Of a DNA stretch of 64,000 nt, positions 10,901-62,100 are shown one piece after another. The notes under the pieces are model-generated. The model did no database searches and was not told the DNA's origin. It saw only the letters and a list, made by a program, of their open reading frames with translations. The stretch spans positions 620,001 through 684,000 of the forward strand of contig JAOTOL010001633.1 in the NCBI GenBank assembly GCA_034440575.1, given 5' to 3'. The translations under genes and the position numbers were made by a program. The stretch comes from Imbricaverruca yamaguchii. Its lineage: Eukaryota; Arthropoda; Thecostraca; Neoverrucidae. How positions within the stretch are numbered: the stretch's first letter is position 1; the number at the start of each line of letters is the position of its first letter.

Positions 10901-13900
10901 GTGCACGGTAGCGCGCCGTTTTTTTGTCATTGTCCGTGGAAACCTTATGGGCGGGCGGGGGGGGTGCAAAGACACCCGAGACGGCGTGAGTGAACACCCC
11001 CGGCTGGGATGACCAGTTGGCAACTGACCAAGCAAGGTCGGGAACGCAGGCACCAGGCGACCACACCCGACCATGTGGCCGCGCTACACTCTAGGATCGA
11101 AACAATTGTGCTAGAAAACTGGAATTTGGGGGGGGGGTGTAGGGGCGCATCGACTGCGTTGGTCAAACAGCCTAGAAGTCATACAGCCTAGAACTGGAAT
11201 ACCCTGACTGGGAGGCAGATTCAGGGCCAGTGCAACAAGCTCACGCTTAGCATCGACTGATTCTTTTGAGCTTCCCCAACAACAATTCGAACATTTTTCA
11301 AGGAATATCGACAGTTTATTTTCTAACTATATTTTGTGAGCCTTCTGATCCAGAAAATGCATCCGCAAAGCCCTACTAACAAGCGAAAAAGCTCACTTCC
11401 ATTGACAATTAGCAACTGAGACCTCCGCAGCTGGTGCCTGTGACGGAAGGCCGGCCACGAGACGTCGTCGATCGATGGTTCGTGGCGGGCAGCTCGGCAT
11501 CGAGTGGGCGGACAGCCTGGCTCACTGGGCGGACAGCCTGGCTCACCGGGCGGACGGACAGCCTGGCTCACTGGGCGGACGGACAGCCTGGCTCACCGGG
11601 CGGACAGCCTGGCTCACCGGGCGGACGGACAGCCTGGCTCACCGGGCGGACGGACAGCCTGGCTCACCGGGCGGACGGACAGCCTAACTCACTGGGCAGA
11701 CAGCCTGGCTCACTCGGCAGACAGTCCGGCTTAGTGGGCGGGTAGCCTGGCTCACTGGGAGGATATCCTGGCTCACTGGGCGGTCAGCCTGGCTCACTGG
11801 GAGGATATCCTGGCTCACTGGGCGGTCAGCCTGGCTCACTGGGAGGATATCCTGGCTCAGTGGGTGGACAGGCTGGCTCACTGGGCGGACAGCCTAGCCC
11901 AGTGGGCGGGCAGCCTAGTTCAGTGGGTGGGCAGCCTGGTTCAGTGGGCGGACAGTCTGGCTCACTGAACGGACAGCCTAGCTCAGTGGGCGGGTAGCCT
12001 GGCTCAGTGGGCGGGCAGCCTGGTTCAGTGGGCGGGCAGCCTGGTTCAGTGGGCGGACAGCCTGGCTGACTGAACGGACAGCCTGGCTCAGTGGGCGGGC
12101 AGCCTGGCTCAGTGGGCGGGCAGCCTGGTTCAGTGGGCGGGCAGCCTGGTTCAGTGGGCGGACAGCCTGGCTCAGTGGGCGGACAGCCTGGCTCAGTGGG
12201 CGGACAGCCTGGCTCAGTGGGCGGACAGCCTGGTTCAGTGGGCGGGCAGCCTGGTTCAGTGGGCGGGCAGCCTCGCTCAGTGGGCGGACAGCCTAGCTCA
12301 GTGGGCAGGCAGCCTGGTTTAGTGGGCGGGCAGCCTAGCTCAGTGGGCGGGCAGCCTGGTTCAGTGGGCGGGCAGCCTAGCTCAGTGGGCGGGCAGCCTG
12401 GTTCAGTGGGCGGGCAGCCTAGCTCAGTGGGCGGGCAGCCTGGTTCAGTGGGCGGACAGCCTAGCTCAGTGGGCGGGCAGCCTGGTTCAGTGGGCGGACA
12501 GCCTAGCTCACTGGGCGGACAGCCTAGCTCAGTGGGCGGGCAGCCTGGTTCAGTGGGCGGACACCCTGGGCTCCGTGGGGCCGGCCGCATCCACACTATG
12601 TATCCACGTTCAGTTTAGCTCACATGTATTGAATAGATCTGGAGACAAAGGATACCGAGGACGAACAGTTTTAACCTACAATTCAGTTTGACCTACGCCT
12701 ATCTGATCTAGGTGACTATAATAATGAGGCTACGTCCATGATGCAAATCAACTCGATGTTTACCTATGTCGAGGCTACTGGAATGGGTGCCATAATATTA
12801 AGGGAAAATACTCTCACCCAGCAGGGCGCGTGATTTTCTGGAGGACCACCATGATGATCAACTTCAGGGTGGCCGCATACGTCAATGCATCAATTTCAGG
12901 AGGACGGCAACACTATTCCTGTGAGTCATTTTACCCATACTTCTGTGCTGTGGTGGGGGGATGGATTTCTGTCGTTGAGGTCTCGAAAACCTAGCGTCTG
13001 ATTTTCCTGCAAAAGAGCGTAAACAAATCATGCTGACATAGCGCCTTGATTTCAATATACGAGTGCAGAATTGTTTGCAGAGGTTTATCGAATACCCCAC
13101 ATATGCACACATGGTATTCCAGGGCCAGGCCATAATCTGGATCACCAAAAATACGCGCTCGCTTTTGATGTGATGTCATGCATTCACCCAATCTTGTGGA
13201 CTTTCCTGAACATTCTGGATGCGCCCTGGCGAACTGGCATAGTTCCCTCCAGAAGGCAACTTGAAATCAATCGGTCGTCTATATCGCCCAAACTCTTGCT
13301 ATCCTGGTGGAGTTGCGGGTGTTCCCGACCGCCTGAAGGTCGGTCGGCCGGCGGCCGGGCCACATTGTTCCGCAGCCAACCATCCCACGCCCACTGGTCG
13401 GGTAACCAGAGCACGACGTGAGCGGGGCCGGCCCGGCACCGCACTGACGTGTGTCACGTGCCGCTGGGGCTGGTGACACCAGCCATGGACACATCAGCCC
13501 GGCACTGACGTGTGTCACGTGCCGCTGGGTCTGGTGACACCAGCCATGGACACATCAGTCCGGCACTGACGTGTGTCACGTGCCGCTGGGTCTGGTGACC
13601 CCAGCCATGGACACATCAGCCCGGCACTGACGTGTGTCACGTGCCGCTGGGTCTGGTGACACCAGCCATGGACACATCAGTCCGGCACTGACGGTGTCAC
13701 GTGCCGCTGGGTCTGGTGACCCCAGCCATGGACACATCAGCCCGGCCCGGCACTGACGTGTGTCACGTGCCGCTGGGTCTGGTGACCCCAGCCATGGACA
13801 CATCAGCCCGGCACTGACGTGTGTCACGTGCCGCTGGGTCTGGTGACACCAGCCATGGACACATCAGCCCGGCACTGACGTGTGTCACGTGCCGCTGGGT

Positions 13901-16900
13901 CTGGTGACACCAGCCATGGACACATCAGCCCGGCCCGGCACTGACGTGTGTCACGTGCCGCTGGGGCTGGTGACACCAGCCATGGACACATCAGCCCGGC
14001 ACTGACGTGTGTCACGTGCCGCTGGGTCTGGTGACCCCAGCCATGGACACATCAGCCCGGCACTGACGTGTGTCACGTGCCGCCGGGTCTGGTGACCACC
14101 AGCCATGGACACATCAGCCCGGCCCGGCACTGACGTGTGTCACGTGCCGCTGGGTCTGGTGACACCAGCCATGGACACATCAGCCCGGCACTGACGTGTG
14201 TCACGTGCCGCCGGGTCTGGTGACACCAGCCATGGACACATCAGCCCGGCCCGGCACTGACGTGTGTCACGTGCCGCTGGGTCGGGTGACACCAGCCATG
14301 GACACATCAGCCCGGCACTGACGTGTGTCACGTGCCGCTGGGTCTGGTGACACCAGCCATGGACACATCAGTCCGGCACTGACGTGTGTCACGTGCCGCT
14401 GGGTCTGGTGACCCCAGCCATGGACACATCAGCCCGGCCCGGCACTGACGTGTGTCACGTGCCGCTGGGTCTGGTGACACCAGCCATGGACACATCAGCC
14501 CGGCACTGACGTGTGTCACGTGCCGCTGGGTCTGGTGACACCAGCCATGGACACATCAGCCCGGCACTGACTGTGTCACGTGCCGCTGGGTCTGGTGACC
14601 CCAGCCATGGACACATCAGCCCGGCACTGACGTGTGTCACGTGCCGCTGGGTCGGGTGACACCAGCCATGGACACATCAGCCCGGCACTGACGTGTGTCA
14701 CGTGCCGCTGGGTCTGGTGACACCAGCCATGGACACATCAGCCCGGCACTGACGTGTGTCACGTGCCGCTGGGTCTGGTGACCCCAGCCATGGACAAATC
14801 AGCCCTACATCATACAGACCGCTACTGGCCTACACCTACATCACACAGGGGCCGCTACTGGCCCAGCCCTACCACACAGGGACCGCTACTGGTCCAGCCC
14901 TACCACGCAGGGACCGCTACTGGTCCAGCCCTACCACACAGGGACCGCTACTGGCCCAGCCCTACCACACAGGGACCGCTACTGGTCCAGCCATACCAGA
15001 CAGGGACCGCTACTGGTCCAGCCCTACCACACAGGGACCGCTACTGGTCCAGCCCTACCACACAGGGGCCGCTACTGGTCCACACCTACACCACACAGGG
15101 TTGGTTGGTTACTGGTTCTACGACACATCGACCGTTAAGTCATGTAGCGCCGCCGATCGCTCACGTCGATTGGTCGCGGGCGAAGAGTAGCGACAGGTGA
15201 GACACGAACCCACTACATCACACAGGGACCGCTACTGGTCCACACCTAGATCACACAGGGACCACTACTGACCTACACCTGCATCACACAGTGACCGCTA
15301 TTGGCCTACACCTACATCACACAGGGACCGCTACTGGTCCACACCTACACCACACAGGGACCGCTACTGGTCCACACCTACACCATACAGGGACCGCTAC
15401 TGGTCCACACCTACACCACACAGAGGCCACTGCTGGTGCAGTGCACACACAGCAGATGAACTGCTGCTAGTCCAGCCCTATGCCATGTATGGGGCCGCTG
15501 CTGCCGGTCCAGTCCCTAAACGGCGTACAAGACGCTGTCGGCCCAGTTTATACACGACAGACCGCCACTGCAGATCCAGTCCTACACGACAGACCGCCAC
15601 TGCAGGTCCAGTCCTACACGACAGACCGCCACTGCTGGCGCAGTCTTACACGACAGACCGCCACTGCTGGCGCAGTCCTACACGACAGACCACCGCGAGT
15701 GATCAGATATGACCGCCACGGCGCCGGTCCCCACAACCACGGCGCCGGTCCCCACAACACGGAACCGTGAGTAGCTGGCCGCCCATAAGCCGATGCATTT
15801 CGATGTCAGACAGCGACAAAATCGATACGGCCGTCTGGCCGTGGGCCGGCCAGTAGCGGCTGGAAATACTCGGCCAGGTGCTGTGTTCAGGTCGGCCAGC
15901 AGACCGCCGCTCCCCTCAGTCGCCCAATGCGCGGGCCAGGTGCTGTGTTCAGGTCGGCCAGCAGACCGCCCCTGCCCTCCGCCGCCCAATGCGCGGGCTC
16001 ACCGCACAACTTCATGCGGGCGGGCGCCGCGTTCGCAGATCACGGTTGTCTGGCGATTGGCAACATGCAAATGCGGACCACGGCTCGATTGTGCTGCCAG
16101 TTGACCAAGACATGTGGCGGCAAGCTTCGATCCGCAGCTGTGCAGTTACATTCAAAGCGAACAGTTCAGAATGTCTCATATAGTGGTGCGTTGCTCCTTC
16201 ACTGCGCACAGCGGACAAGAGGGTGTGGCCCTCGGGCCGGTTAATCTCCTCCGATAGCCAGGTTGGCATGGATGCCTGTTTGACGATTCCTGACACCTTT
16301 GATGGATCATCCGATTTAGTCCATCTCACACGCGAAATTCACTTCCTTTTGACCCATCTCCGCCCTTCAGCCTACGTTCATTCGAGAAAATGACAGTCGA
16401 CGAAGTAGTCATCGAAAAACCACTTCAGTTGTCATGATAGATGGGTTATAACGCAAGGCACAACTGGCTCCACAAAATAATCAATCTAGATGCAACCGAA
16501 GGTAACAGCTATCGAAAATTTAAAATTAGCATCTAGTTAGATTGTTACGTAGTGCTATGAGCAAGGGCGAGGTTATTATGGCGAACATGTTTTGGCACAG
16601 ATCCGACAGAAGTACATGTGAATGACCTAATCCGACAGCCACGTTCATAAAACTTAAGAATGCTCTGTAACAGTCATTAATTGCAAAGTTTTCCGTGCTA
16701 AGAGGGATGAAGTCCGTTTTCGTCTCGTTCAACTTCAGAGACATTTGTATTGCTGCATGGAACCAAAAAGGCATCTACGACCTTCAGCGAGAAAGAGACC
16801 AAAACATGACTCGCCGACAGCGGTGCATGGCGTCGAAGGCGGCGTGGCCGACTCAATGCGTGAAATGTTCACGCGGCGTACCGCGGTCTCCAACTCAAAA

Positions 16901-35374: not shown

Positions 35375-35644
35375 GTGGAGGCAAGAGTATCACAGAGCTG
35401 AGCGATGCGCCTCTGAGCGCCTCGACCATCAACGGCGCCACCTCCGACCTTCTCTCGTCGGCGATGGACTCGTCGGGTCTGCCGGGCGGCTCGGGCGCCA
35501 GCTCGTCGCGCCAGTCCAAGATCGACCGTCTGATCCGGGACGGCCTACTCACCAAGGGTGGCACCCAGCCGCCCGGCTTCCAGGTCATCAAGCCCGAGGA
35601 GCCGCCGCCCGGCTCCCCCAACCCGGCCAGCCTGCTGCAGCAGT
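35375..35644 (+). CDS. sno: sno exon 3 (N-terminal region)
   Basis: 270 nt after acceptor ggtgccgcag. It starts with two bases of a split codon, then [20 protein letters not shown] ... [14 protein letters not shown] ... [11 protein letters not shown]. The donor is gtgagt at 35645. That donor is the first of 15 identical ones spaced 30 nt apart, so the true 3' boundary could be any of 35644, 35674 ... 36064, each keeping the frame. The first donor is chosen as the ancestral one. Confidence 0.85.
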
Positions 35645-38600
35645 GTGAGTGGCGTGGCTGGCTGCTGCAGCAGTGTGAGTGGCGTGGCTGGCTGATGCAG
35701 CAGTGTGAGTGGTGTGGCTGGTTAATGCAGCAGTGTGAGTGGTGTGGCTGGTTGATGCAGCAGTGTGAGTGGTGTGGCTGGTTAATGCAGCAGTGTGAGT
35801 GGTGTGGCTGGTTAATGCAGCAGTGTGAGTGGTGTGGCTGGTTAATGCAGCAGTGTGAGTGGTGTGGCTGGTTAATGCAGCAGTGTGAGTGGTGTGGCTG
35901 GTTAATGCAGCAGTGTGAGTGGTGTGGCTGGTTAATGCAGCAGTGTGAGTGGTGTGGCTGGTTAATGCAGCAGTGTGAGTGGTGTGGCTGGCTGCTGCAG
36001 CAGTGTGAGTGGTGTGGCTGGTTAATGCAGCAGTGTGAGTGGTGTGGCTGGTTAATGGAGCAGTGTGAGTGACGTGTGTAGATGGTCCAACAATGTGAGT
36101 GTCGTGGCTGGCTGATGCAGTAGTGTGACTAACCAATGGAGTATCTTGCATATGCAAGGCAGTGGAGTTGTTTCAGTTCCTTGTGCTCTGCAGTGCATAC
36201 ATGTCCGCACGTTTGCAAACGTTGACAATATCTTGTGTTGATGTCGTTTTTATCGGGTCCGCAGCGCTCATGACTGGTAGCCTCTCCAAGTTGGCCTCGG
36301 GCGGTGGCATCATGCCGCCTCCGGCCGGCATGATGGCCCAACAGCTAGGCATGATGGGCGTTCAACCAGGCATGATGGGCTCTCAACCGGGCATGATGGG
36401 CGGCCAGCCGGGCATGATGGGCGCCCAGCCGGGCATGACCGGCGCGCCAGGGTCCCGGACGAAGGTGATCGTGAAGCCACCCACGGTAAGCAGCGAGTGT
36501 GGGCTTCAGCTGGGCCTGTCGCTGCCGACTGCGAAGGCTGGTGGATTTGTTGTCACCTGGGTGGGATGGAAGAGGGAGATGGGCAAGAGCCGGAGATGTG
36601 AATTTGTGAGGTAGAATGTGCTTCATTCGCTCTGAAGGGTTCAGCTTGCTGTTTACCCTATTTGTATTATTCTTTTATTCAGTTTTGTGTGTGATTCTCA
36701 GGCTGTGACACTGAGGGGAATGCACGATGAAGCTTAGTGCACAGGCCACTTGCAGGCCGTAGTTCAGGCAGTAGCCACGTGATAATTTGTGGACGAGATG
36801 TCAGTTTTGTCGGCTGAGATTATTTACCGTCACTTGCTGCGGTGAACCGGTCAGACGTGTAGCATTTGAAGGAGCTGTCGTAAAATGGCACGCATTAATA
36901 GAAATCGCCAAATTTAGAACATCGTTTACTAGATACGAGAACTTACCAGATTTCCTTGATGTACATTTCGAACAAAAACACCATATGTCAATTCATTCGA
37001 ATTAATATTGAGCATACCTACCAGAAGGTTTGAGTATCCTACACCAACGTGAAGGTCCTGTACCAAAAATAGTAATGTGTACAGTGAGTCTTGATCGGAT
37101 ATAAAGGAGAGTAAATGACTTGGTCTGGAAGGCTTAACGGATGAGGTTGGTTGTTTCAGGTACTTTAGTTGAACCTGTCATATGCTGCCACTATTTTCAG
37201 CCAGTTTGTTTACATTGGTTGAAGCAACCAGGGTATGTTTGGCACTGCATGACCTCAGCAGTCGATGTGCCCCTAAACCACAATAACCAACGAACCAGCC
37301 AGGGTATGTTAATTTTAGCTATCTGCTGCGACCGGGTCTAACAATGCGATGTTGATTTAGACTGTATAATATTGCCTGGAAATTGGTGGCATTACACAGG
37401 CTACATTATGCTATACACAGTGCTCTGACTAAAACGTGACTCCTTTCACAAGCAACTATATGAGGATCCGTTCTTGGTAAGTAGCGTCTCGGAGGTAGAT
37501 ATATTTCTTAGCCCCGTGATCGAACGTTCGTGTGCTCTCCATTCCAATTTATGTGCTTGGTGTGTGTGCTATCATCTCTGTATTAGTTCTGATATGGTTA
37601 GACATGATAACAATGGTGTGTGTGTGTGTGTGTGGAGGGGGGGGAGGGGGAGAGGGCGACAGATTTCCTCACACTTGGGTATGTTTTGACCTCCCGGCGG
37701 TGACTACGGTGGCGCCATTTTCAGGGCTGGCCATAAGCCAAGGAAGGCTAGTTTCTGCTGCGTTAGTGGCTAATGCTGGACGCAATAGGCGAAGGCTGTT
37801 TAAGTTGCATAAGCTGTGCAAACGTTCCTTATTTTAGGGACATCTGTGGGAAAAATTCTCACACTTTTATGATAGTTTTGAAGGCTGATAGCTTTTAAAG
37901 CTAGTATTGCTAACAGGTTGGTACCTAGCGGAAGGAAAAATTTGGTGGAACGTTTAAAGAATCCGCGAGTCCATGAACTGTGTGACACCCGTATAGGTTG
38001 GGACATCCATGCAAATGTCTCACAATTCAGGTACTGCTTTCCAGATGGTACTGTTCCTACTTGCCATCATAGGCTTAGTGCCGAATTCCTGTAACGTATG
38101 TATTCCCCAAAGAAGTAAGGTAGTCCTAGACCCTCACCCCTTTAACGCCAAAACACAAACCGTCGGGTAAATTTGCCTGCACATTGCAAGGGAGTATCTG
38201 AATGTATTTGTTCGCAGTGAGAAATGTATCTGTATGGGGGATGGTCCGGTCATAGCCATTGGCAACCATAACAACTTACAGTCAGGGGGGGGGGGGGCAT
38301 AGTTGCAGCCATCGGCAGCCATAACAACTTACAGTCAGGGGGAGGGCATAGTTGCAGCCATCGGCAGCCATAGCAACTTACAGTCAGGGGTGGGGGAGGG
38401 GGAGGGCCTAGTTGCAGCCATCGGCAGCCATAGCAACTTACAGTCGGGGGTGGGGGAGGGGAAGGCCTGGTTACAGCCATCGGCAGCTATGACAGTTTCA
38501 GTTCCTGGGGATGACCTGATCACATTACAGTCGTGGGGGGGGGGGGGCAGAGTGCCATAACGTCGCGATGACGTATGGGGTCGCGGCTGTTCAGTGGGCA

Positions 38601-44600: not shown

Positions 44601-47600
44601 CTAACTGGCGCTTTGAACCCCGCATGATTGGACGCACCAGGTCCGGCCAATATCCGGCGTCTGTCGGTGCTGTCGAGCCCCGTGTCGGGGCGTGCGATGT
44701 CAGGCCGGCCAGGTTTAACTCGGGTGGCGACTGTTCACCTGGCCACGAGTATGATTTGCCTGGCTTTATCTAGTGTGACCAATCGATATAAATGGATGCA
44801 CTCCGTAAAGGAAGAGTGTTTTGTTTTCGTCACGTCTATTTGTGAGCGCTTCTCCGTTTGTTTTCCGCTGGCTGCCATTAGATTGTTCAATGTAGTGACC
44901 AACCGAACCAGGAGAGCGCGTTTGTGAATTGACTTCTTTGTTTTCGTTCATTCAACTAGGAAGCAATGGGTGAAGGCCAGTAAATTCAGAGACGCATTGA
45001 CAGGCGTTTTTGGGATCAGGCAAAGGCCCGACATCATCGACATGTTGGAGGTTAAATCCGTTGCCGTTCAGGGAGGTCCGCTGTGGCTGCTCTTCCGACC
45101 AGCTCGTTTGTCTCCAGATGCAGATGCAGCAGGAGGACGAGGCCGTCGAGGAGGAGGACGAGGACATGGGCGTGGCCGAGACGTACGCTGACTACATGCC
45201 CACCAAGCGTGAGTGGCGGTCGATGGGGGCGTCGTGGGCGGTCGTTGGGAGTGCCGTGGGTGGTCCGTCCTGCCGCCGTGTCCGCTCTGACCGCTCTGAC
45301 CGCTCTGACCTCTGACCACGGCTGTGCCGGCTGACTGACCACCGGCTGCCCCGCTGGTCGCCCGGACGCGCGTCAAAGTTGGTCTGGTGCAACTGCGCTC
45401 TGCGCAAGGTCAGGTTGGACGGTAATGTGCAAGGCCAGACCATGCACGCTGGTTGGGTGGCGTACGGTTTTTCAGTCAATGTGCCTTGAAGCCCCACTGC
45501 TCTATCGTGCAATTGCGTGTGATTCGGCTATTGTGGGGAACTGTAACCTGTACGGGGCGAACCTGTACCTGGACGGCGAACCGGGAGTGGGTGGGAACAC
45601 CGGGTGGGGTTCGCCAGTGACCCACCCGTCTGTGCCGCACGCCAGTGAAGATGGGCCGTAAGCACCCGGACCCGGTGGTGGAGACGGCCTCGCTCGCCTC
45701 GGTGGAGCCCACCGACGTGTGGTACGACCTGTCCATGCCCGAGGAGGTGATCAACCAGGCCAAGCTGTCGGCGCTCCAGCTGGAGGCCATCACCTACACG
45801 TGCCAGCAGCACGCGCAGTTCCTCAAGGACGGCAGCCGAGCCGGATTCCTGATAGGTGAGTTGAGCTGGTCCAGAGGTGAAAAGTTGACCTTAAATCACA
45901 CTTATTTTCTTGCATTGGCCTTGAAATGAGATGTATGGTTCGTAACTTAATTTCTACGATTAAAAAAATCAACTTTCTATTTTAACTTTCTTCGTGACCT
46001 CACATTCCGTAATCTGTACCTCGTGACCCCTTTTACTTATATACCTACGAATCAACCGTGATCTGGTCTGTGGATAACACCGTGTACTTGTTCTGAAAAT
46101 CATAGGTATGGTGAACAATTTGAGGTTTGCATCGGTGATTTGGCCTGGATCGCCCAAATGTGATATTTCCTAAACGATTCACGGAAAGTAATAGTTTAAT
46201 TTGCACCATGCAAAAGATAACTACTCAAATATGCAAACTAACATCGATTTGTCATTTTTGAAAGTTGGAGAACCGTGCTGTGAAACATAGGCGCCACATG
46301 TCTGCATCACAACCACATCCCCGTCACAGCCTCGTCATGAGGGTTGTGCCAGTCGTCAGGAGCTAACCGAGAAATACCTGCAGGCGATGGCGCCGGTGTG
46401 GGAAAGGGCCGCACAATTGCCGGCCTCATCTACGAAAATTACCTGAAGGGTCGCAAGAAGTCGCTCTGGGTGTCCGTCTCTAATGACCTCAAGTACGACT
46501 GCGAGCGCGATCTGAGCGACATCGGCGCCGGCAAAATCACTGTCCACCCGCTCAACAAGGTGAGGGTTGGCAGGCGTCGGTACAGCGCCAACAACTTGGT
46601 GACATCGGCACCGTCCACTCGCTCAACAAGGTGAGCGTTGACGGGCGTCGGTACAGGCCCGACAACTCCACAACTCGGCGACATCGCGCTGTATGACCTC
46701 TGCAGTTGATGCGCCCCAATAACAACAACTCGGCGACATCGGAACCGTCCACCCGCTCAACAATCTCACCTGTCGCTACTCTTCGCCCGCGACCAATCGG
46801 CGTGAGAGATTGGCGACACTACATGACTCAACGGTCGATGTGTCGTAAAACCAATAGCCAACCAACCAGCTCAACAAGGTTAAGGCTGACGGGCGTCGGC
46901 ACAGCGCCGACCACTCGGCGACATCGGCACTACCCGGACACGTCTGGTAATGCCTGTTGCCCTCGTGTGGTCGCCTTGACTGGTGCTCTGGCTCGGTGGC
47001 CGGCCGCTGATGAGCGCCTGTCCGCCTGCCGCTGATGCGCCTGTCCGCCTGTCGCTAATGCGCCTGTCCCGCCTGCCGCTGATGCGCCTGTCCGCCTTCC
47101 GCCAGCTCAAGTACGCCAAGATCAACTCGCCGGTGAACGGCGACATTAAGAAGGGCGTCATCTACTCCACCTACTCGTCCCTGATCGGCGAGTCGTCGAC
47201 GGTCGGCGGCAAGTACAAAACGCGCCTGAAGCAGCTGCTCAACTGGTGCGGCGACGACTACGACGGACTCGTATCCTCTGAGTGCCGGTGTGCATGTGAC
47301 TGGTGTCGGCTCTGGTGTGGTGCGGTATTTGCGGCCGTTGTGATGTGTGGTGTGGTGATGTACGTGCGTGTTGTGTCACGGCGTGGTTGTGTGCGTGAAG
47401 TTGTGATGTGTTGTGTGGTGTGGTGATGTGCGCGCGTGTTGTTTTAATGTGATATGGTCATGTGCACGTGTTGTGTTGTGAAGTGGTGATGTGCGCCCGT
47501 TTTATTTCACGGCTTGTTTGTGTGTGAGTGAATGTTCTGTTGTGGTGTGGTTGCGTGGTCGGCGGGTATAAGTCAAATTCTGGAACTGAAATTTTGAAAA

Positions 47601-54900: not shown

Positions 54901-57900
54901 AGTGTTAGAATATTGTTGTTCTTTTTCGTTACGTGTGAGTTGTCGGAACGGGTTCCGCAGAATGTCGTACTTTCCCATGGATTGAATGTCGCTTAAAATC
55001 GCCACGGACTCTTAAGCACATTTTTGGCCAATTGCACACCTACAGGTTTTAAACATTTACTTGTGCATTTGTTTCATTTGTGCACGCGTGGGGACGAGTA
55101 GCATAGGGGTAAGTTTCACGTCTCACAATCGAAAGATTGTGGGTTCAAGCCTCGCCTGTCGCTACTCTTCGGGCGCCTGTTTAGTGCAGGCGACACACGG
55201 AGAGCGATACGCTGACACTGCCGTCCGCCGGGGCAGATGACCGGCCGGAAGGGGCGCGTCGTGCAGAACGACGACGGCCAGATCGCCTACGAGTCGCGCT
55301 CCGAGCAGGACATCCCGCTGGAGACGCTCAACCTGGCCGAGAAACGCCGCTTCATGGACGGCGAGAAGGACATCGCCATCATCTCTGAGGCCGCCTCGTC
55401 GGGCATCTCGCTGCAGAGCGACCGGCGCGTCAAGAACCAGCGCCGGCGCGTCCACATCACACTGGAGCTGCCCTGGAGCGCCGACCGCGCCATACAGCAG
55501 TTCGGTGAGTGTCGTGGAGCGCCGACCGTGCCATACAGCAGTTCGGTGAATGCCGTGGAGCGCCGACCGCGCCATACAGCAGTTCGGTGAGTGCCGTGGA
55601 GCGCCGACCGCGCCATACAGCAGTTCGGTGAATGCCGACCTCGCGCGTCGTGACCGAGCCGGTAATTGAGTCCCATAGTGGTCTGGCTCCGCCAAGGGTG
55701 ACCGTGTTAGTTGGTTATTCGAGTTTAAGGGCCAGTAGCCAAGACCGGTATGCGTCTGACTCCGCCCACCGTGGCCGTGTTAGTTGTTTATTTAAGTGTA
55801 AGGGTCAGTAACCAGTTCCCATATGCCTCTGGCTCATCCTGCTGTGACTGGGGTAGTGTCCTGAATTTCATTGGTTTCTGGTAGTTGGAAGAGACAGGGA
55901 CAGAGACAAAGGGGGAGGGGTAAGAATAAAATGATGCAGACTAAGTTGAAATGTTTCTCTGTAATGCATATTTGTAAGTTATTTTCAGTTGATGGTTTCA
56001 GCCACCCCAATACTTTGGTGTTCCAGGATTGCCACTTTGAATATGGGGAGGGTGCATAATCATGCATTTTGTATTTGTCATGTGGAAATTTTAGGCTACA
56101 TAAGATTAGGCACCGTGAAGGCCTCATACCGACCCCACCAAATTCAGTCACCTATGATGAATATTGCATTGAAATTTGAAAGATGCAGCAGAAAACATGC
56201 TTTACTTTAGTGCAGTGTGTGTACTAGCTGTCGCCACTAACACAGTGTGTCCGCGCCAGTTGTCGCCACTAACACAGTATGTCTGCGCCAGTTGTCACTA
56301 ACACAGTGTGTCCGCGCCAGTTGTCGCCACTAACACAGTGTGTCTGCGCCAGTTGTCACTAACACAGCGTGTCCGCGCCAGTTGTCGCCACTAACACAGT
56401 GTGTCTGCGCCAGTTGTCGCCACTAACACAGTGTGTCTGCGCCAGTTGTCGCCACTAACACAGTGTGTCTGTGCCAGTTTTCGTCACTAACACAGCGTGT
56501 CTGCGCCAGGTCGAACACATCGGAGTAACCAAGTGAACGCCCCCGAGTACGACTTCCTCATCTCAGAACTGGCCGGAGAAAGGCGCTTCGCTTCCATTGT
56601 AGCGAAGCGGCTCGAAAGTTTGGTGAGTCACGTGTAGTCATGTTTGATAATGTGGCATCGGGAGGTGGTACGGTGTGGCATCAGAAGGTGTGATTGTGTA
56701 GCACCTGAAGGTGGCATGGCGTGGCATCAGGAGGCGTGATTGTGTGATATCTGGTATGGTGTGGCATCAGGAGGTGAAATTGTTGGGCATCAGGAGGTGG
56801 TGTGGCGTGCATCAGAATGGCGGTACGTTGTGGCATCAAAAAATGGTACGTTGTAGCATCAAAATATGATATGGTGTGGCAACAGGAGGTTGGATTGTGT
56901 GGCATCTGGTACGGTGTGGCATCAGGAGATGGCACGGTGTAGCGACAGGAGGTGACAGTGTGGCATCGGGGGGTATAATTTTGTGCCGTCAGGGCGACAG
57001 CGGGTAGGACAGTCGGGAGGCGTCTGGCCGATCGTGACGTCAGCACGCGGAACGATGCGCCCTTGGCGGATGCACCATGCCGTGACGTGACGTGTCTGAC
57101 CCCAGGGCGCGCTGACGCACGGCGACCGTCGCGCCACCGAGTCGCGCGACCTCTCCCGCTTCAACATCGACAACAAGTATGGTCGGGCGGCGCTCGAGGC
57201 CACCATGAAGACGGTGATGGGGTACGAGCAGCCGCTGGTGCCGCCGCCGGAAGACTACCGGGGAAACTTCTTCGGCGGTAGGTAGTCGGCTGCCACACGC
57301 CACGTCACCCTCGGCGTGGTTGGCCGCAGTCCGCTCCGACCGCAGAGTATTCGCCCGGAGGGCACTCCCTCGGTCTGGACTTCTCCCCTGACCAGTCTAC
57401 CCCACTCGTCAGGCAGCTTCACTCACCCTCGTATGTTCACTGGTACCTTGCTGTACTTGCGTAGCCATAGCTTTAGTTGGGCTCTGAAAATGTGTGCATT
57501 CCCCATCAAACTTCGTTCATAGAAGGGCATACGTCATATGCGTATATTCACCAGTTGGCCACGTTCACCAGTTGGCCGCGTCTTGGCCTTCGTGCGGGCT
57601 CGGATGCCTAAATTTGATATTAGTTTATATCACATGACATTAGTAGCAGCAAATATCAGATAAGCAGTAAGTACATGACCGCCTGTACGATGCCATGACA
57701 TTCTGAAATTTGAGTGAAAACATACTAAAGGACAATTGTGTTTGAGATATCTTTCCTTTTGACATTAAGTGTCAGTTTTGTTCTTCTTTTTGCTAAATGA
57801 TGTGAGTGAGATTTGCGTCTAGTGAGATTTGCGTCTTTAGAAGCGCGTATCGCTTCCGGCAGCAGAACTGCCAACTGGAAAAGGCAGCAGATACACCACT

Positions 57901-60900: not shown

Positions 60901-62100
60901 AAAGTTTGAATCGTCTCGCACAACTGTACATAGACCTCGGTTCCGCTTGGTACCACTGACTACTTGATCGTGGGTCTCCGATAATTTCACCGACAGACAA
61001 TAATGTAAAGCGAACATGTAAGGATACATTTTTTCTGTTCACAAGGTTTGTTCACAATTAATCCTCGCCTAACGAGCATATTTTGCCAGCATTTCCCTTC
61101 CGACGGGGTGGTTGCCACCCCTCGCCGGGCCGGCCTCCAAATTCACTTTTTGCGTGGCCGGGGGATATTCAAAGCCCCTCGATATTTTGATTATAATATG
61201 CCAGGATGAAATACAGAATACTATTAGAATGCTTTGGACATAAGGCGCCCAAAGCTTATTTTGACTTACATTTTGGCTGATAATTAGTTCACCAGAGGTC
61301 ATATTAGGTCACAAAAAGGACCCTGACATGTCTGTGGAATTTGTTTGAAAAAAGGCCGTATTTGTGTTCTTTCGCCATTGTTTTTCGATAGTTAACCAAG
61401 ATGAAAGCATTTATATTTAGCATAGTGAAAAGGGTCAAGACAGGATATGTCATGGCATGGCCAGATCAGATTCATGCTTGAATGCCAGCTTCCAAACTAT
61501 GCATGTTAAAACACAGGGGAAATGCCATTAGCAACCCAATAGAGCCTCGGACTCGGGGCAGTTCTTATTTCTCCATTTTCGGGCATGCTGGTGTCGCTAG
61601 AGTTCATAATAGGTAAGTCCAGTGACTCCTGACTTGACTGATGCCGCTGCCGGCAGACGTGAGACGTGACTGATGCCGCTGCCGGCAGATGTGAGACATG
61701 ACTGATGCTATTGCCGGCAGACGTGAGACGTGACTGATGCCGCTGCCGGCAGACGTGAGATGTGACTGATGCCGCTGCCGGCAGACGTGAGACGTGACTG
61801 ATGCCGCTGCCGGCAGATGTGAGACGTGACTGATGCCGCTGCCGGCAGATGTGAGACGTGACTGATGCTATTGCCGGCAGATGTGAGACATAACTGATAC
61901 CGCTGCCGGCAGACCTGGGCTCCCAGGAGGGCTCGGTACAGCGGACAAAGCTGTGCGTGTACCTGCACAAGCACGCGACGGGCACGGGACGCACCGAGCT
62001 GCACACAGTGCACGTAGAGCGCGGCTGCAGCTGGAAGGAGGCGCAGGAGAAGTGGGCTGAGCTGGAGGCCACCGACGAGGGCTTCTACGTGTCTCACCAG
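35375..62100 (+). CDS. sno: strawberry notch (SBNO) helicase-like ATPase, 22 exons; 3' end beyond window
   Basis: Twenty-two exons with GT/AG ends join without a frame break into about 3.67 kb, roughly 1,225 codons. SBNO proteins are nuclear DExD/H-type ATPases that act as transcriptional co-regulators (Notch and EGFR signalling in Drosophila; SBNO1/2 in vertebrates). Seen in order: a Gly/Met/Gln-rich N-terminal segment, an acidic stretch and ETYADYMP, the AAA_34-type core with Walker [12 protein letters not shown], the DECH Walker B box, [16 protein letters not shown], a second half with [35 protein letters not shown] and the motif VI-like [11 protein letters not shown], then the C-terminal SBNO region to GFYVSHQ. 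An acidic Ser/Asp insert (52754-53598) matches the variable linker of the family. The last part of the C-terminus is missing because the window ends. Identity is firm; SBNO1 versus SBNO2 does not apply to an invertebrate single copy. Confidence 0.96.
35635..36130 (+). repeat. 30-bp minisatellite made of the sno exon 3 splice donor
   Basis: Units cagtgtgagtggtgtggctg, gttaatgcag; the first copies have ggcgtgg and ctgctgcag like the exon end. GTGAGT recurs at 35645, 35675 and every 30 nt to 36065 (15 copies). The exon frame stays open through the array as ([10 protein letters not shown])n and stops at 36070-36072. Confidence 0.95.
36265..36485 (+). CDS. sno: sno exon 4 (Gly-Met-Met repeat segment)
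   Basis: 221 nt between acceptor gggtccgcag and donor gtaagc. It completes a Ser codon (T+CG), then reads [18 protein letters not shown], four heptads of the form GMMGxQP from a coding 21-bp tandem repeat (about 36348-36440), and [11 protein letters not shown]. It ends in phase 0. Low complexity, but the phase fits both neighbours. Confidence 0.88.
37245..37300 (-). repeat. element C copy
   Basis: gcatgacctcagcagtcgat, gtgcccctaaaccacaataa, ccaacgaacc: reverse orientation of the copy at 343, in sno intron 4. Confidence 0.65.
38225..38480. repeat. roughly 53-bp tandem repeat with G-runs
   Basis: Five copies of gcagccatcggcagccatag, caacttacagtcaggggtgg plus a variable G-run (up to 13 G at 38286). 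Lies in sno intron 4. Confidence 0.85.
38750..38926 (+). CDS. sno: sno exon 5 (Met/Gln-rich, ends WMNDYK)
   Basis: 177 nt, 59 codons, between acceptor gcgtcacag and donor gtgagt. It encodes [20 protein letters not shown] ... LSLSQ-like Gln/Leu stretch ... [14 protein letters not shown]. The final WMNDYK aligns with the WINDMK-type segment I recall before the acidic stretch in vertebrate SBNO1. Confidence 0.9.
39590..40130 (+). pseudogene. Penelope-like retroelement, GIY-YIG endonuclease remnant
   Basis: Two frames are needed: [19 protein letters not shown], then after a frameshift near 39870, [20 protein letters not shown] followed by [19 protein letters not shown]. The VYKFxCPxxxC...YLGATTxSLSxRLxxH pattern is the Cys-containing GIY-YIG domain of Penelope-like elements. 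Stop codons follow, so it is dead. It lies in sno intron 5. Confidence 0.65.
40327..40515 (+). mobile_element. SINE D, tRNA Leu/Ser-like head
   Basis: 189-bp element with a 14-bp near-exact duplication tcaggaact(t/g)atga (40313-40326 and 40516-40529). The head reads gtcgagtggttaagatgttg then ccaaaggtcccgggttaacc (long variable arm type); the body has cattagccgtggatgttcat and the tail ccaaataaacaa. Confidence 0.88.
41134..41193 (+). CDS. sno: sno exon 6 (20-codon exon)
   Basis: 60 nt between acceptor gttttatag and donor gtaagc, in phase 0 on both sides. It encodes [20 protein letters not shown]. Short and low complexity; possibly an optional cassette because its length is a multiple of three. 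Confidence 0.78.
41270..41645. repeat. roughly 60-bp degenerate minisatellite, sno intron 6
   Basis: About 6-7 units around gtctcgcacctccgcgccgc, tccggtgccactgcacggga, ctcttatcctgccgtcctgc. Starts about 75 nt after the exon 6 donor. Confidence 0.85.
41660..45117. other. remainder of sno intron 6
   Basis: No exon recognised. One element C copy (about 43497-43530) and otherwise mostly unique sequence. Confidence 0.55.
45118..45208 (+). CDS. sno: sno exon 7 (acidic stretch, ETYADYMP)
   Basis: 91 nt between acceptor tttgtctccag and donor gtgagt. It encodes [18 protein letters not shown] followed by [12 protein letters not shown] and one base of Leu. This acidic run plus ETYAxYMP is a conserved SBNO landmark just before the ATPase core. 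Confidence 0.95.
45646..45855 (+). CDS. sno: sno exon 8 (start of ATPase core)
   Basis: 210 nt between acceptor cacgccag and donor gtgagt. It encodes [58 protein letters not shown] and RAGFLI plus one base of Gly. [11 protein letters not shown] is the Q-motif-like region of the strawberry notch AAA_34 domain. Confidence 0.97.
46384..46559 (+). CDS. sno: sno exon 9 (Walker A)
   Basis: 176 nt between acceptor aatacctgcag and donor gtgagg. It completes Gly, then [20 protein letters not shown], the phosphate-binding loop with GVGKGRT, followed by [20 protein letters not shown] and ITVHPLNK. It ends in phase 0. The exon's 3' end with its donor is duplicated downstream (46590-46650 and further). 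Confidence 0.97.
46687..46725 (-). mobile_element. solo SINE 3'-domain (element C) with 16-bp duplication
   Basis: A 39-bp insert (cctctgcagttgatgcgccc and ccaataacaa) interrupts a duplicated copy of exon 9's end. It is flanked by the exact 16-bp duplication caactcggcgacatcg (46671-46686 and 46726-46741). The orientation given is that of gggttta.. reading on the minus strand. Confidence 0.75.
46764..46868 (+). mobile_element. SINE A, 5'-truncated, in sno intron 9
   Basis: 105-bp plus-strand body and tail inserted inside a duplicated copy of exon 9's 3' end, with a 9-bp duplication gctcaacaa (46755-46763 and 46869-46877). The junction duplication therefore predates this insertion. Confidence 0.9.
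47010..47105. repeat. roughly 26-bp repeat abutting the sno exon 10 acceptor
   Basis: Three to four units of gccgctgatgcgcctgtccg running into the ccgccag acceptor at 47105. Confidence 0.7.
47106..47270 (+). CDS. sno: sno exon 10
   Basis: 165 nt, 55 codons, between acceptor ccttccgccag and donor gtatcc. It encodes [30 protein letters not shown] and [20 protein letters not shown]. The donor is weak after +4 but gives the exact family junction, DGL joined to IIFDECH. Confidence 0.95.
47280..47560. repeat. GT-rich degenerate repeat
   Basis: Units of about 38-60 bp such as gtgtggtgatgtgcgcgcgt and tgttgtgaagtggtgatgtg. In sno intron 10, just after the exon 10 donor. Confidence 0.6.
47896..48137 (+). 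CDS. sno: sno exon 11 (DECH box, SAT-like motif)
   Basis: 242 nt between acceptor cggtaccag and donor gtgagg. It encodes [55 protein letters not shown] and [20 protein letters not shown], then K and a split Arg. DECH is the Walker B/DEAH-type catalytic box and SATG the motif III equivalent. Confidence 0.97.
48320..48600. repeat. roughly 40-bp tandem repeat in sno intron 11
   Basis: About six units of agtatagtgctgtgttgcca, gtgagacagacccggtgctc, ending about 40 nt before the exon 12 acceptor. Confidence 0.85.
48639..48792 (+). CDS. sno: sno exon 12
   Basis: 154 nt between acceptor gtaccggcag and donor gtacgt. It completes Arg and encodes [37 protein letters not shown] and [12 protein letters not shown]. 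Very close to [20 protein letters not shown] of vertebrate SBNO. It ends in phase 0. Confidence 0.97.
49143..49303 (+). CDS. sno: sno exon 13
   Basis: 161 nt between acceptor tgtttggcag and donor gttagt. It encodes [40 protein letters not shown] and [13 protein letters not shown], then two bases of a split codon. [18 protein letters not shown] is an SBNO signature. Confidence 0.97.
49640..50218. repeat. two tandem arrays before sno exon 14
   Basis: 49645-49800: three copies of about 60 bp (ttattctaccctgcgtgcat, cagtcacgctgtcgtacatc). 49905-50150: about four diverged units carrying tgtcccagcaacgtcag, which resembles the exon 14 acceptor gttcgccagcaacgcca. Confidence 0.75.
50219..50338 (+). 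CDS. sno: sno exon 14
   Basis: 120 nt between acceptor ctgttcgccag and donor gtgagt. After the split codon it encodes [39 protein letters not shown] and two bases of Lys. This is the start of the second helicase-like lobe. The intron just upstream contains diverged copies of the acceptor sequence cccagcaacg. Confidence 0.96.
50455..51470. repeat. 37-bp minisatellite in sno intron 14
   Basis: About 27 copies of cccagccgtcccgtccaccc, acagctgccgggactgt. It yields open frames up to 396 codons on either strand, none of them credible proteins. Confidence 0.92.
51605..51777 (+). CDS. sno: sno exon 15
   Basis: 173 nt between acceptor tgatcggcag and donor gtaacc. It encodes [40 protein letters not shown] and [17 protein letters not shown] plus one base. 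[16 protein letters not shown] is conserved in SBNO; the tail begins the variable linker. An alternative donor (gtaaca, 51760) would remove a few codons. Confidence 0.93.
51917..51988. repeat. (TA)n microsatellite in sno intron 15
   Basis: About 35 TA dinucleotides following acacgcaca. Confidence 0.95.
52560..52790 (+). repeat. diverged copies of the sno exon 16 acceptor region
   Basis: gtgttaggctccatgag (52586), ggacgtgttggtggcggtgc then gtcgggctgcgtgag (52641-52675) and the true tgacgtgttggcggcag plus tacgccaggcggcc (52737-52767) align at roughly 85-90-bp spacing. Confidence 0.6.
52754..52903 (+). CDS. sno: sno exon 16 (basic/acidic linker)
   Basis: 150 nt between acceptor gttggcggcag and donor gtgagc. 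It encodes [40 protein letters not shown] and DSDFKMS plus one base of Gly. Low-complexity linker equivalent to the charged insert of SBNO1. Both its acceptor and donor have diverged tandem copies nearby. Confidence 0.88.
52895..53015 (+). repeat. duplicated sno exon 16 donor
   Basis: aagatgtctggtgagc ... cagcgggccggctggttctc (52894-52935) recurs as gggatgtcgggtaagtcttc, agtgggccggctggctctga (52958-52999). Period about 64 bp. Confidence 0.7.
53506..53598 (+). CDS. sno: sno exon 17 (acidic Ser/Asp linker)
   Basis: 93 nt between acceptor gaacggcag and donor gtacgc. It encodes [20 protein letters not shown] then [10 protein letters not shown] and one base. The phase fits both neighbours. The strongly acidic Ser-rich composition matches the linker of the family. 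Confidence 0.9.
53650..53697 (-). repeat. element C copy
   Basis: ggccatggcagtcgatgcgc, ccctgagcctaaataactaa in sno intron 17. Same family and order as the other copies. Confidence 0.6.
54010..54187 (+). mobile_element. SINE D, second copy
   Basis: 178 bp: ggctgagtagttaagatgct, gtcccgggttcgacactcgc B-box, gacatttcccaatcccgcgg body and ccaataaacaaacaa tail, same order as the copy at 40327. Short flanking duplication tggtcaat (54002 and 54188). Confidence 0.85.
54288..54345 (-). repeat. element C copy inside a tandem array
   Basis: gcaagacctccgcagtcgat, gcgcccataaactccaataa, ccaaccaacc interrupts a roughly 28-bp array of tatcgaccggtcaaagtctg-like units (54243-54455). Confidence 0.65.
54486..54739 (+). 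CDS. sno: sno exon 18
   Basis: 254 nt between acceptor ctcgctgcag and donor gtgggt. It encodes [60 protein letters not shown] and [20 protein letters not shown] then E. [18 protein letters not shown] is strictly conserved in strawberry notch proteins. Confidence 0.97.
55090..55175 (+). mobile_element. SINE A head only
   Basis: tRNA-like head gggacgagtagcataggggt ... attgtgggttcaagcctcgc followed by ctgtcgctactcttcgggcg, then unrelated sequence. The A and B boxes resemble those of the full copies. The 3' body is missing. Confidence 0.75.
55237..55504 (+). CDS. sno: sno exon 19 (helicase C-terminal motifs)
   Basis: 268 nt between acceptor gccggggcag and donor gtgagt. It encodes [60 protein letters not shown] and [19 protein letters not shown] plus one base of Gly. 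EAASSGISL and the QQFG end belong to the Helicase_C_4 domain. The last 31 nt plus 10 nt of intron are tandemly repeated downstream. Confidence 0.97.
55474..55640 (+). repeat. 41-bp tandem copies of the sno exon 19 end plus donor
   Basis: tggagcgccgaccgcgccat, acagcagttcg and gtgagtgccg: exon end and three further copies with donors gtgagt, gtgaat, gtgagt, gtgaat. Period 41 is not a multiple of three, so only the first donor keeps the known frame. Confidence 0.92.
56214..56509 (+). repeat. 32-bp minisatellite copying the sno exon 20 acceptor
   Basis: About 9-10 units tgtgtctgcgccagttgtcg, ccactaacacag; some lack cgc/gcc. The last unit supplies gtgtctgcgccag used at 56509. Confidence 0.9.
56510..56622 (+). 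CDS. sno: sno exon 20 (motif VI RTHRSNQ)
   Basis: 113 nt between acceptor gtctgcgccag and donor gtgagt. It completes Gly and encodes [44 protein letters not shown] completes the motif VI-like [10 protein letters not shown]. The preceding intron ends in a 32-bp minisatellite whose units each contain the acceptor motif cgccag. Confidence 0.97.
56640..56990. repeat. roughly 30-bp degenerate repeat, sno intron 20
   Basis: About a dozen units of gtggcatcaggaggtggtac, ggtgt. Begins about 20 nt after the exon 20 donor. Confidence 0.8.
57106..57277 (+). CDS. sno: sno exon 21
   Basis: 172 nt between acceptor tctgaccccag and donor gtaggt. It encodes [38 protein letters not shown] and [16 protein letters not shown] plus one base of Asp. 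[20 protein letters not shown] is nearly identical in all SBNO proteins. Confidence 0.97.
57278..58427. other. sno intron 21
   Basis: Unique, AT-moderate sequence without a recognisable exon, SINE or array. Confidence 0.55.
58428..58527 (+). CDS. sno: sno exon 22
   Basis: 100 nt between acceptor ggtcggcag and donor gtatgt. It completes Asp and encodes [32 protein letters not shown] and a split Arg. A 64-bp minisatellite begins about 35 nt after the donor. Confidence 0.96.
58560..59335. repeat. 64-bp minisatellite after sno exon 22
   Basis: About 12 copies of ggtggtggtcggtgatagtg, tcgcaggacgtcatgcctga, ccggcccatgccgtgcctcg, ggca. The minus-strand 218-codon frame over it is an artefact. Confidence 0.92.
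59390..59990. repeat. CATCACCAAC-type and 57-60-bp repeats
   Basis: 59390-59640: short catcgccaaccatcaccaac units. 59645-59990: about six units of ctcgcacactcatcgagtaa, tcaactctcaccagctcacc, aacac. Confidence 0.8.
60543..60658 (+). CDS. sno: sno exon 23
   Basis: 116 nt between acceptor ctcgtccacag and donor gtgagc. It encodes [20 protein letters not shown] then [19 protein letters not shown] and one base. Matches the RILGMxxxxQNxLFxYFxDT segment of SBNO. Confidence 0.97.
61640..61912 (+). repeat. 32-bp minisatellite copying the sno exon 24 acceptor
   Basis: gccggcag ends at 61656, 61688, 61720, 61752, 61784, 61816, 61848, 61880 and 61912, exactly 32 nt apart. The unit is acgtgagacgtgactgatgc, cgctgccggcag. 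Confidence 0.95.
61913..62100 (+). CDS. sno: sno exon 24 (last exon in window)
   Basis: 188 nt between acceptor gctgccggcag and donor gtacgc. It encodes [58 protein letters not shown]. The acceptor is the last of nine identical gccggcag copies spaced exactly 32 nt; using the one before would put a stop in frame after five codons (AT GTG AGA CAT AAC TGA). At least one more exon must follow to the right. Confidence 0.95.

What the first reader, a model, noticed from the sequence alone, without database searches (positions are those of the whole stretch)
35640..36072. Fifteen identical splice donors, 30 nt apart and phase-preserving, after sno exon 3
Every 30-bp unit carries CAGT|GTGAGT in the same codon position. 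The exon frame remains open through the array (ten residues [10 protein letters not shown] per unit) and ends in TGA in the fifteenth unit. Splicing at any copy would join in frame to exon 4 and add 0 to 140 residues in steps of ten. Array length changes between individuals would then change the protein range without breaking it. I know of no named system like this.
Basis: partly seen in the sequence, partly recalled or inferred. Interest (0 to 1): 0.88.

Follow-up and report, generated by a model that had tools for sequence, protein, structure and literature searches.

The report
Repeat array copying a splice donor
A short stretch containing the end of an exon and its splice signal has been copied about sixteen times in a row in what is probably a barnacle gene, most likely as a harmless by-product of a repeat-rich genome rather than as a device for making proteins of many lengths.

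Summary
The array is real: window 35636-36128, period 30, 16.4 copies, with fifteen CAGT|GTGAGT donors in one codon phase. It begins at the donor of an exon (35375-35644) of a probable barnacle strawberry notch (sno) gene; joins of donors 1, 2, 8 and 15 to the next exon are in frame.

The length-ladder reading is weak. Six further junctions of the gene, of 48 placed, carry tandem copies of themselves: donors with periods 71, 41, 50 and 33, and two acceptors with period about 32. One has 18 CAG|GTGAGA donors and breaks the frame. In five of the six, every non-flush copy I read gave a shifted or stopped frame. Two of seven periods are multiples of three, as chance gives. The repeated donor scores second lowest of 21.

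Best explanation: minisatellites grew over splice junctions and splicing hides them, because the exon-flush copy is intact and used. Human CBS has a named 31-bp VNTR of this type. What stands out is recurrence: seven of 48 junctions in one gene, perhaps also N-CoR and Sec5 genes nearby. No RNA was available, so donor usage is untested.

The parts
   Evidence: homology to Oratosquilla sno P0007 (122 vs shuffle maximum 69); acceptor GTGCCGCAG|GTGG
35636..36128 (+). 30-bp minisatellite crossing the donor; 9 nt inside the exon, the rest intronic if donor 1 is used; 16 GTGAGT copies
   Evidence: TRF, unit listing, overlap
   Evidence: placed by phase and sequence, not by alignment to P0001
46384..46900 (+). 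exon E8 (46384-46559) with its end and donor copied 71 nt downstream (donor at 46631) and, decayed, at 46879
   Evidence: near-copy search, sequence, frame test of the 46631 copy
55469..55637 (+). 41-bp x4 array copying the end of exon E18 (helicase C motif [12 protein letters not shown]) and its donor at 55504
56229..56509 (+). 29/32-bp x9 array of acceptors, ending exactly at the acceptor of exon E19 (56510)
61631..61914 (+). 32-bp x9 array of acceptors crossing the acceptor of exon E23 (61913)

Best explanation
A tandem duplication took in the last bases of an exon, its splice donor and the first bases of the intron, then expanded to about 16 copies as an ordinary minisatellite. Such a duplication is hidden by splicing: the copy flush with the exon is unchanged, so if the spliceosome uses that copy the protein stays the same and the other copies are intron. 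The same happened at six other junctions of the same gene, at acceptors as well as donors. Shown: the copies, their phases, the exon boundaries by homology or phase, and that in five of the six other arrays the non-flush copies I read give a broken frame. Inferred: that the flush copy is the main one used, and that use of downstream copies at this exon is rare and tolerated because the period happens to be 30 and the N-terminal region is poorly conserved.
For: Gene identity: Helicase_C_4 (E 6.4e-44) and 89% identity to Pollicipes sno over 56% of the query. Seven junction-copying arrays in one gene, periods 30, 71, 41, 50, 33, 32 and 29/32. Using any of the 3 other E18 copies, the second E8 copy, any of the 8 upstream E19 or 8 upstream E23 copies, or the 4 other E24 copies I read, gives a shifted or stopped frame. 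E24, outside the window at C1400:687589-688610, has 20 copies, 18 with CAG|GTGAGA. None of the 120 listed homologs (of 2538 found) contains the read-through peptide words, and a search with the read-through ORF gave nothing at E 0.001 among 91 candidates. Introns of the window's 21 exons are 24% tandem array, so arrays reaching splice sites are expected. Edge units are diverged and the middle homogeneous, as is usual for minisatellites (recalled).
Against: No RNA evidence shows which copy is used. Arrays crossing junctions exceed random placement inside introns if only 12 nt of exon overlap is allowed (6 against 1.5, P 0.002), though not if 36 nt is allowed (3.6, P 0.13), so a cause beyond random placement is not excluded. 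A second array (E25, period 33) is also in frame and open for its first two extra copies. All eight upstream E23 acceptor copies score higher (9.0-11.8) than the flush one (7.5) and one E18 copy scores the same as the flush donor, so by this simple score the flush copy has no advantage there.
Confidence: 0.75

Rival explanations
1. One reading: the spliceosome uses many of the fifteen donors and the gene makes a graded set of proteins, 0 to 140 residues longer, whose range shifts with array length.
For: All fifteen donors have identical nine-base sequence and phase; joins at copies 1, 2, 8 and 15 are in frame and open; the E25 array is also in frame for two extra copies.
Against: Frame-breaking arrays of the same build occur in the same gene. 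The idealised added peptide ([10 protein letters not shown] x14) has 56 Cys+Trp in 140 residues, and the real one, with Arg for one Cys in each of the first two units, 54; the most in any 140-residue window of the 120 listed homologs is 11. The donor is weak. No listed homolog carries the peptide.
Confidence: 0.12
2. Arrays start at splice sites because something about splice junctions (for example R-loops or stalled transcription) promotes tandem duplication there, and the splicing machinery of this animal prefers the exon-flush copy by rule.
For: Six of 31 arrays cross or abut a junction, against 1.5 expected with 12 nt exon overlap (P 0.002). Frames matching N-CoR and, weakly, Sec5 nearby also run into donor-copying arrays. 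Array consensus units hold [AC]AGGT[AG]AG in 4 of 135 arrays against 0 for the reversed motif.
Against: With 36 nt overlap allowed the excess is not significant (3.6, P 0.13), and two of the six arrays overlap the exon by 36 and 45 nt. Junction 20-mers have near copies less often (3 of 42) than random intron 20-mers (18.5% of 400). Looser motifs show no excess: GT[AG]AGT 6 against 6, GGT[AG]AGT 1 against 2, of 135 arrays.
Confidence: 0.1
3. Assembly artefact: the copy number or the array itself is wrong.
For: The central units are nearly identical, and tandem repeats are often misassembled (recalled).
Against: The array is only 493 bp inside a 3.3-Mb contig of an assembly of 1430 contigs, which suggests long reads (inference). 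Its edge units differ from the rest. A 20-mer of the unit gave 12 exact matches in the assembly, all in this array (that tool gives lower bounds for repeats).
Confidence: 0.03

Closest known systems
Human CBS 31-bp VNTR, c.1444_1467+7(16_21), exon 13/intron 13 (passages of PMC2630376, and PMC5188458; the original Lievers 2001 is not held)
   Same: Minisatellite of about 30 bp and 16-21 copies that crosses a donor, so each unit holds exon end, donor and intron start (my reading of the name: 24 exon plus 7 intron bases).
   Different: Period 31 does not keep the frame, 30 does. Polymorphism is known in CBS, untested here. Only one such array is mentioned in the CBS passages seen; this gene has seven.
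Human CBS 844ins68 (passage of PMC2630376)
   Same: A duplicated intron 7/exon 8 junction in which, as the passage says, splicing strongly favours one of the two sites and removes the other copy with its mutation.
   Different: A single 68-bp duplication, not an array.
Internal tandem repeats at exon-intron boundaries of human segmental-duplication genes (passages of PMC2812944)
   Same: Units averaging about 30 bp that sit at exon-intron boundaries and can change splicing patterns.
   Different: There the repeats can give rise to new introns; here they lie at the edge of an existing intron.
CeRep25B minisatellite near alternative splicing regions in C. elegans (abstract of PMC4039745)
   Same: A minisatellite associated with splicing choice.
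   Different: It is described as holding regulatory motifs, not copies of the junction.

Membership tests
Minisatellite spanning an exon-intron boundary (CBS type) | Array crosses the exon-intron boundary | tested here: met
   35636-36128 crosses the inferred donor at 35644
Minisatellite spanning an exon-intron boundary (CBS type) | Each unit carries a donor | tested here: met
   16 GTGAGT, one per unit; the 17th partial unit is decayed
Minisatellite spanning an exon-intron boundary (CBS type) | Copy number varies between individuals | not testable with these tools
   one assembly only; the unit was listed at one place; a search for another haplotype did not complete
   donors 1, 2, 8 and 15 joined and read; spacing is 30 throughout
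   2 of 7 junction-copying arrays have periods divisible by three; small number
   no transcripts of this species were available to me
strawberry notch (sno/SBNO) helicase gene | Helicase_C_4 domain and sno homologs | tested here: met
   PF13871 E 6.4e-44; Pollicipes sno P0001

The most novel reading that the evidence does not exclude
This probable barnacle genome is rich in minisatellites that copy splice junctions. Its spliceosome reliably picks the exon-flush copy among up to about 20 nearly identical donors or acceptors, so arrays that would wreck the protein are silent. Where the period is a multiple of three, as at this exon, leaky use of other copies is also harmless, which may let those arrays drift into real protein-length variation.
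Probability: 0.35. Interest if true: 0.75.

Novelty: new variant of a known kind. Interest (0 to 1): 0.5.

Why it matters
Seven junctions of one gene offer natural tests of how a spliceosome chooses among near-identical neighbouring sites: the copies differ mainly in position, and in most of the arrays only one choice gives a working protein. It also shows how repeats can grow across splice sites unseen, which matters for gene annotation in repeat-rich invertebrate genomes.

Tried and rejected
Chance: rejected, since the array is a clear tandem repeat. Selection on the donor within the unit: not seen (9 of 30 nine-base windows are fully invariant). RNA structure: a fold of 950 nt gave mean unpaired values of 0.26-0.60 for the fifteen donors and 0.37 for the first; nothing singles out a donor. 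A zinc-ribbon Pfam hit (PF12172) on the read-through ORF has no stretch passing on its own and I take it to reflect the repeated CxxC. Relatives carrying the N-terminal exons: a search with residues 1-225 found only P0001, which begins at the exon starting 38750. The exons before 35375 were not found, neither by motif in the window nor by tblastn with 20 kb more upstream. Eight chosen ORFs from 5.7-29.4 kb had no Pfam match. Of seven arrays with a donor-like unit listed, two are sno's own, one follows an open run of only 19 codons, and four were examined: one matches N-CoR, one weakly Sec5, and the other two (C1400:752750 and 817278) matched no family and are not counted. The E15-E16 join I used (52903/53506) ranked third (73.0 against 75.7), chosen for its better splice sites and its match to the homolog's acidic stretch; E3, E4 and the E4-E5 join were placed by phase and sequence, not by P0001. 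In one search the end of E26 was set one base early, so the last 110 nt or so of the joined frame read wrongly, with 4 stops; nothing upstream is affected. A genome-wide count of triple donors and a search for a second haplotype did not complete.

Full report
What is there. The window lies in a 767-Mb assembly of 1430 contigs, at C1400:620001-684000. The gene is strawberry notch. The best homolog is Pollicipes pollicipes sno, P0001, 89% identical over 56% of a query I joined from exons; Pfam Helicase_C_4 hits one exon with E 6.4e-44. The species is therefore probably a barnacle (inference). Joins scored against P0001 placed the boundaries from the end of E5 to the start of E23; for one of them, E15-E16, I took the third-ranked join (73.0 against 75.7). 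E3, E4 and the E4-E5 join were placed by phase and sequence. In the window these run from E3 (35375-35644) to E23 (61913-62100), 21 exons. Sequence fetched beyond the window adds E24 to E27, giving 24 introns and 48 junctions.

The reported array. It spans 35636-36128, period 30, 16.4 copies. Fifteen units hold CAGT|GTGAGT, a sixteenth holds AAT|GTGAGT and a seventeenth is decayed. The exon frame is open for 14 units and stops at TGA in unit 15. Joining the acceptor at 36265 to donors 1, 2, 8 or 15 is in frame and open. E3 is supported as an exon: it aligns to Oratosquilla sno with score 122 against a maximum of 69 in 200 shuffles. Three of four decapods checked are also clear (98 against 61, 98 against 60, 113 against 62), the fourth is marginal (P0079, 68 against 61) and the insect P0004 gives nothing (50 against 58).

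Is the phase special? Of 30 arrays in the window with at least three copies and period 8 or more, 12 have periods divisible by three and 22 have at least one fully open frame of six. Over 14 units of this array three of six frames are open, two of them on the opposite strand. Only four of thirty positions vary in units 1-14, and the donor is no more invariant than other parts of the unit. A matrix from 20 other donors of the gene scores AGT|GTGAGT at 3.53, second lowest of 21; 12.6% of 2070 GT sites in the gene score as high, among them another GT of the same unit (4.3), and the sixteenth donor, past the stop, scores 6.6.

The other arrays. E8's end and donor are copied 71 nt downstream and again, decayed, at 46879. 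E18's end, which encodes [12 protein letters not shown], is copied four times with period 41. E24's end occurs 20 times with period 50 and one step of 59; 18 copies have CAG|GTGAGA and two have GC in place of GT. E25's end is repeated four times with period 33. Two acceptors are repeated nine times each, at E19 (29/32 bp, ending exactly at the acceptor) and E23 (32 bp). So seven of 48 junctions are copied in tandem: five donors and two acceptors. Two of seven periods are multiples of three; the E8 period rests on one spacing.

What the other arrays say. For E18 the three extra donors, for E8 the second donor, and for E19 and E23 all eight upstream acceptors each give a shifted or stopped frame. 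For E24 I read four of the 17 other CAG|GTGAG sites found, all broken; from the third copy on a stop lies in the retained sequence, so the rest should be broken too (inference for the unread). For E25 two extra copies are in frame and open, a third shifts, and a further one stops. The five homologs I printed have no insertion at the E18 motif, and the 120 listed (of 2538) lack the read-through peptide words. To make a working helicase the cell must therefore use the exon-flush copy in five arrays. The score of the flush site does not explain this everywhere: all eight upstream E23 copies score higher (9.0-11.8 against 7.5) and the third E18 donor scores the same as the first (10.3), while at E19 the flush copy scores best (8.4 against 4.3-7.8). 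This is indirect evidence that the flush copy is also used at E3.

Is the placement unusual? Six of 31 arrays found by Tandem Repeats Finder cross or abut a junction (E8 is missed by that program). Random placement inside introns gives means of 0.06, 0.45, 1.5, 3.6 and 4.3 when 0, 3, 12, 36 and 45 nt of exon overlap are allowed; 0, 0, 0.2%, 13% and 25% of 3000 placements reach six. An earlier version with 23 arrays and 4 crossing gave 0.05, 0.38, 1.2 and 3.0 for 0, 3, 12 and 36 nt, P 0, 0.0005, 0.03 and 0.34. Near copies were found for 3 of 42 junction 20-mers (a test that misses the two acceptor arrays), against 18.5% of 400 intronic and 2.75% of 400 exonic ones. In 304 kb, 4 of 135 arrays hold [AC]AGGT[AG]AG against none for the reversed motif; GGT[AG]AGT gives 1 against 2, GT[AG]AGT 6 against 6 and AGGTGAGT 0 against 0.

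Beyond sno. Of seven arrays with a donor-like unit in those 304 kb, two are sno's own, one follows only 19 open codons and four were read further. One, 31 bp with 9 donor-like sites, follows a frame matching N-CoR/SMRT (PDB 4a69, E 1.9e-19; in Pfam only a weak Myb match, E 0.028). One, 60 bp with 4 donor-like sites, follows a frame with a weak Sec5 match (E 0.0018, below the curated cut-off). The other two have no match. I did not confirm exon boundaries in any of them.

Mechanism. A tandem duplication that includes exon tail, donor and intron head leaves the original junction in place. If splicing uses the flush copy the change is invisible, so such arrays can grow by slippage or unequal exchange like any intronic minisatellite (inference). 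The middle of the array is homogeneous and the edges are diverged. A period of 30 means that occasional use of another copy would add a multiple of ten residues without breaking the frame, which may be why this array was free to reach 16 copies; the 20-copy frame-breaking E24 array shows that this is not needed.

Comparison with what is known. The human CBS gene has a 31-bp VNTR named c.1444_1467+7(16_21), which by its name includes exon bases and the first intron bases (passages of PMC2630376); another paper says increasing repeat number decreases CBS activity (passage of PMC5188458). That alternative splicing was seen there is my recollection of Lievers 2001, which I could not read. Human internal tandem repeats at exon-intron boundaries are described in PMC2812944 (passages). 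In the Balanus improvisus genome paper 'tandem' and 'minisatellite' do not occur, while a high repeat content is reported (passages of PMC8270832). Most subscription papers are not held.

Verdict.

Noticed in passing
C1400:687589-688610 (in L011), beyond the window: 50-bp array, 20 copies of the end of sno exon E24, 18 with CAG|GTGAGA donors: more donors than the reported array, and frame-breaking.
   Followed up: yes
C1400:690453-690589 (in L011): 33-bp x4 array copying the end of exon E25; the first two extra donors are in frame and open, a second frame-keeping case.
   Followed up: partly
C1400:889214-889603 (- strand): 31-bp array with 9 donor-like sites after a frame matching N-CoR/SMRT.
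   Followed up: partly
C1400:849612-849898 (- strand): 60-bp array with 4 donor-like sites after a frame weakly matching exocyst Sec5.
   Followed up: partly
window 36327-36450: Coding 21-bp x6 repeat (MMGxQPG) inside the next sno exon, possibly length-variable.
   Followed up: no
window 46610-46630: The intronic copy of exon E8's end encodes HSLNK, as in Pollicipes P0001, while the exon encodes HPLNK.
   Followed up: no
window 47270: The inferred donor of E9 (CTC|GTATCC) scores lowest of 21; the boundary may be wrong.
   Followed up: no
window 13441-14805 and 11503-12579: Large minisatellites (61 bp x22, 21 bp x50) in a stretch where I recognised no gene.
   Followed up: no
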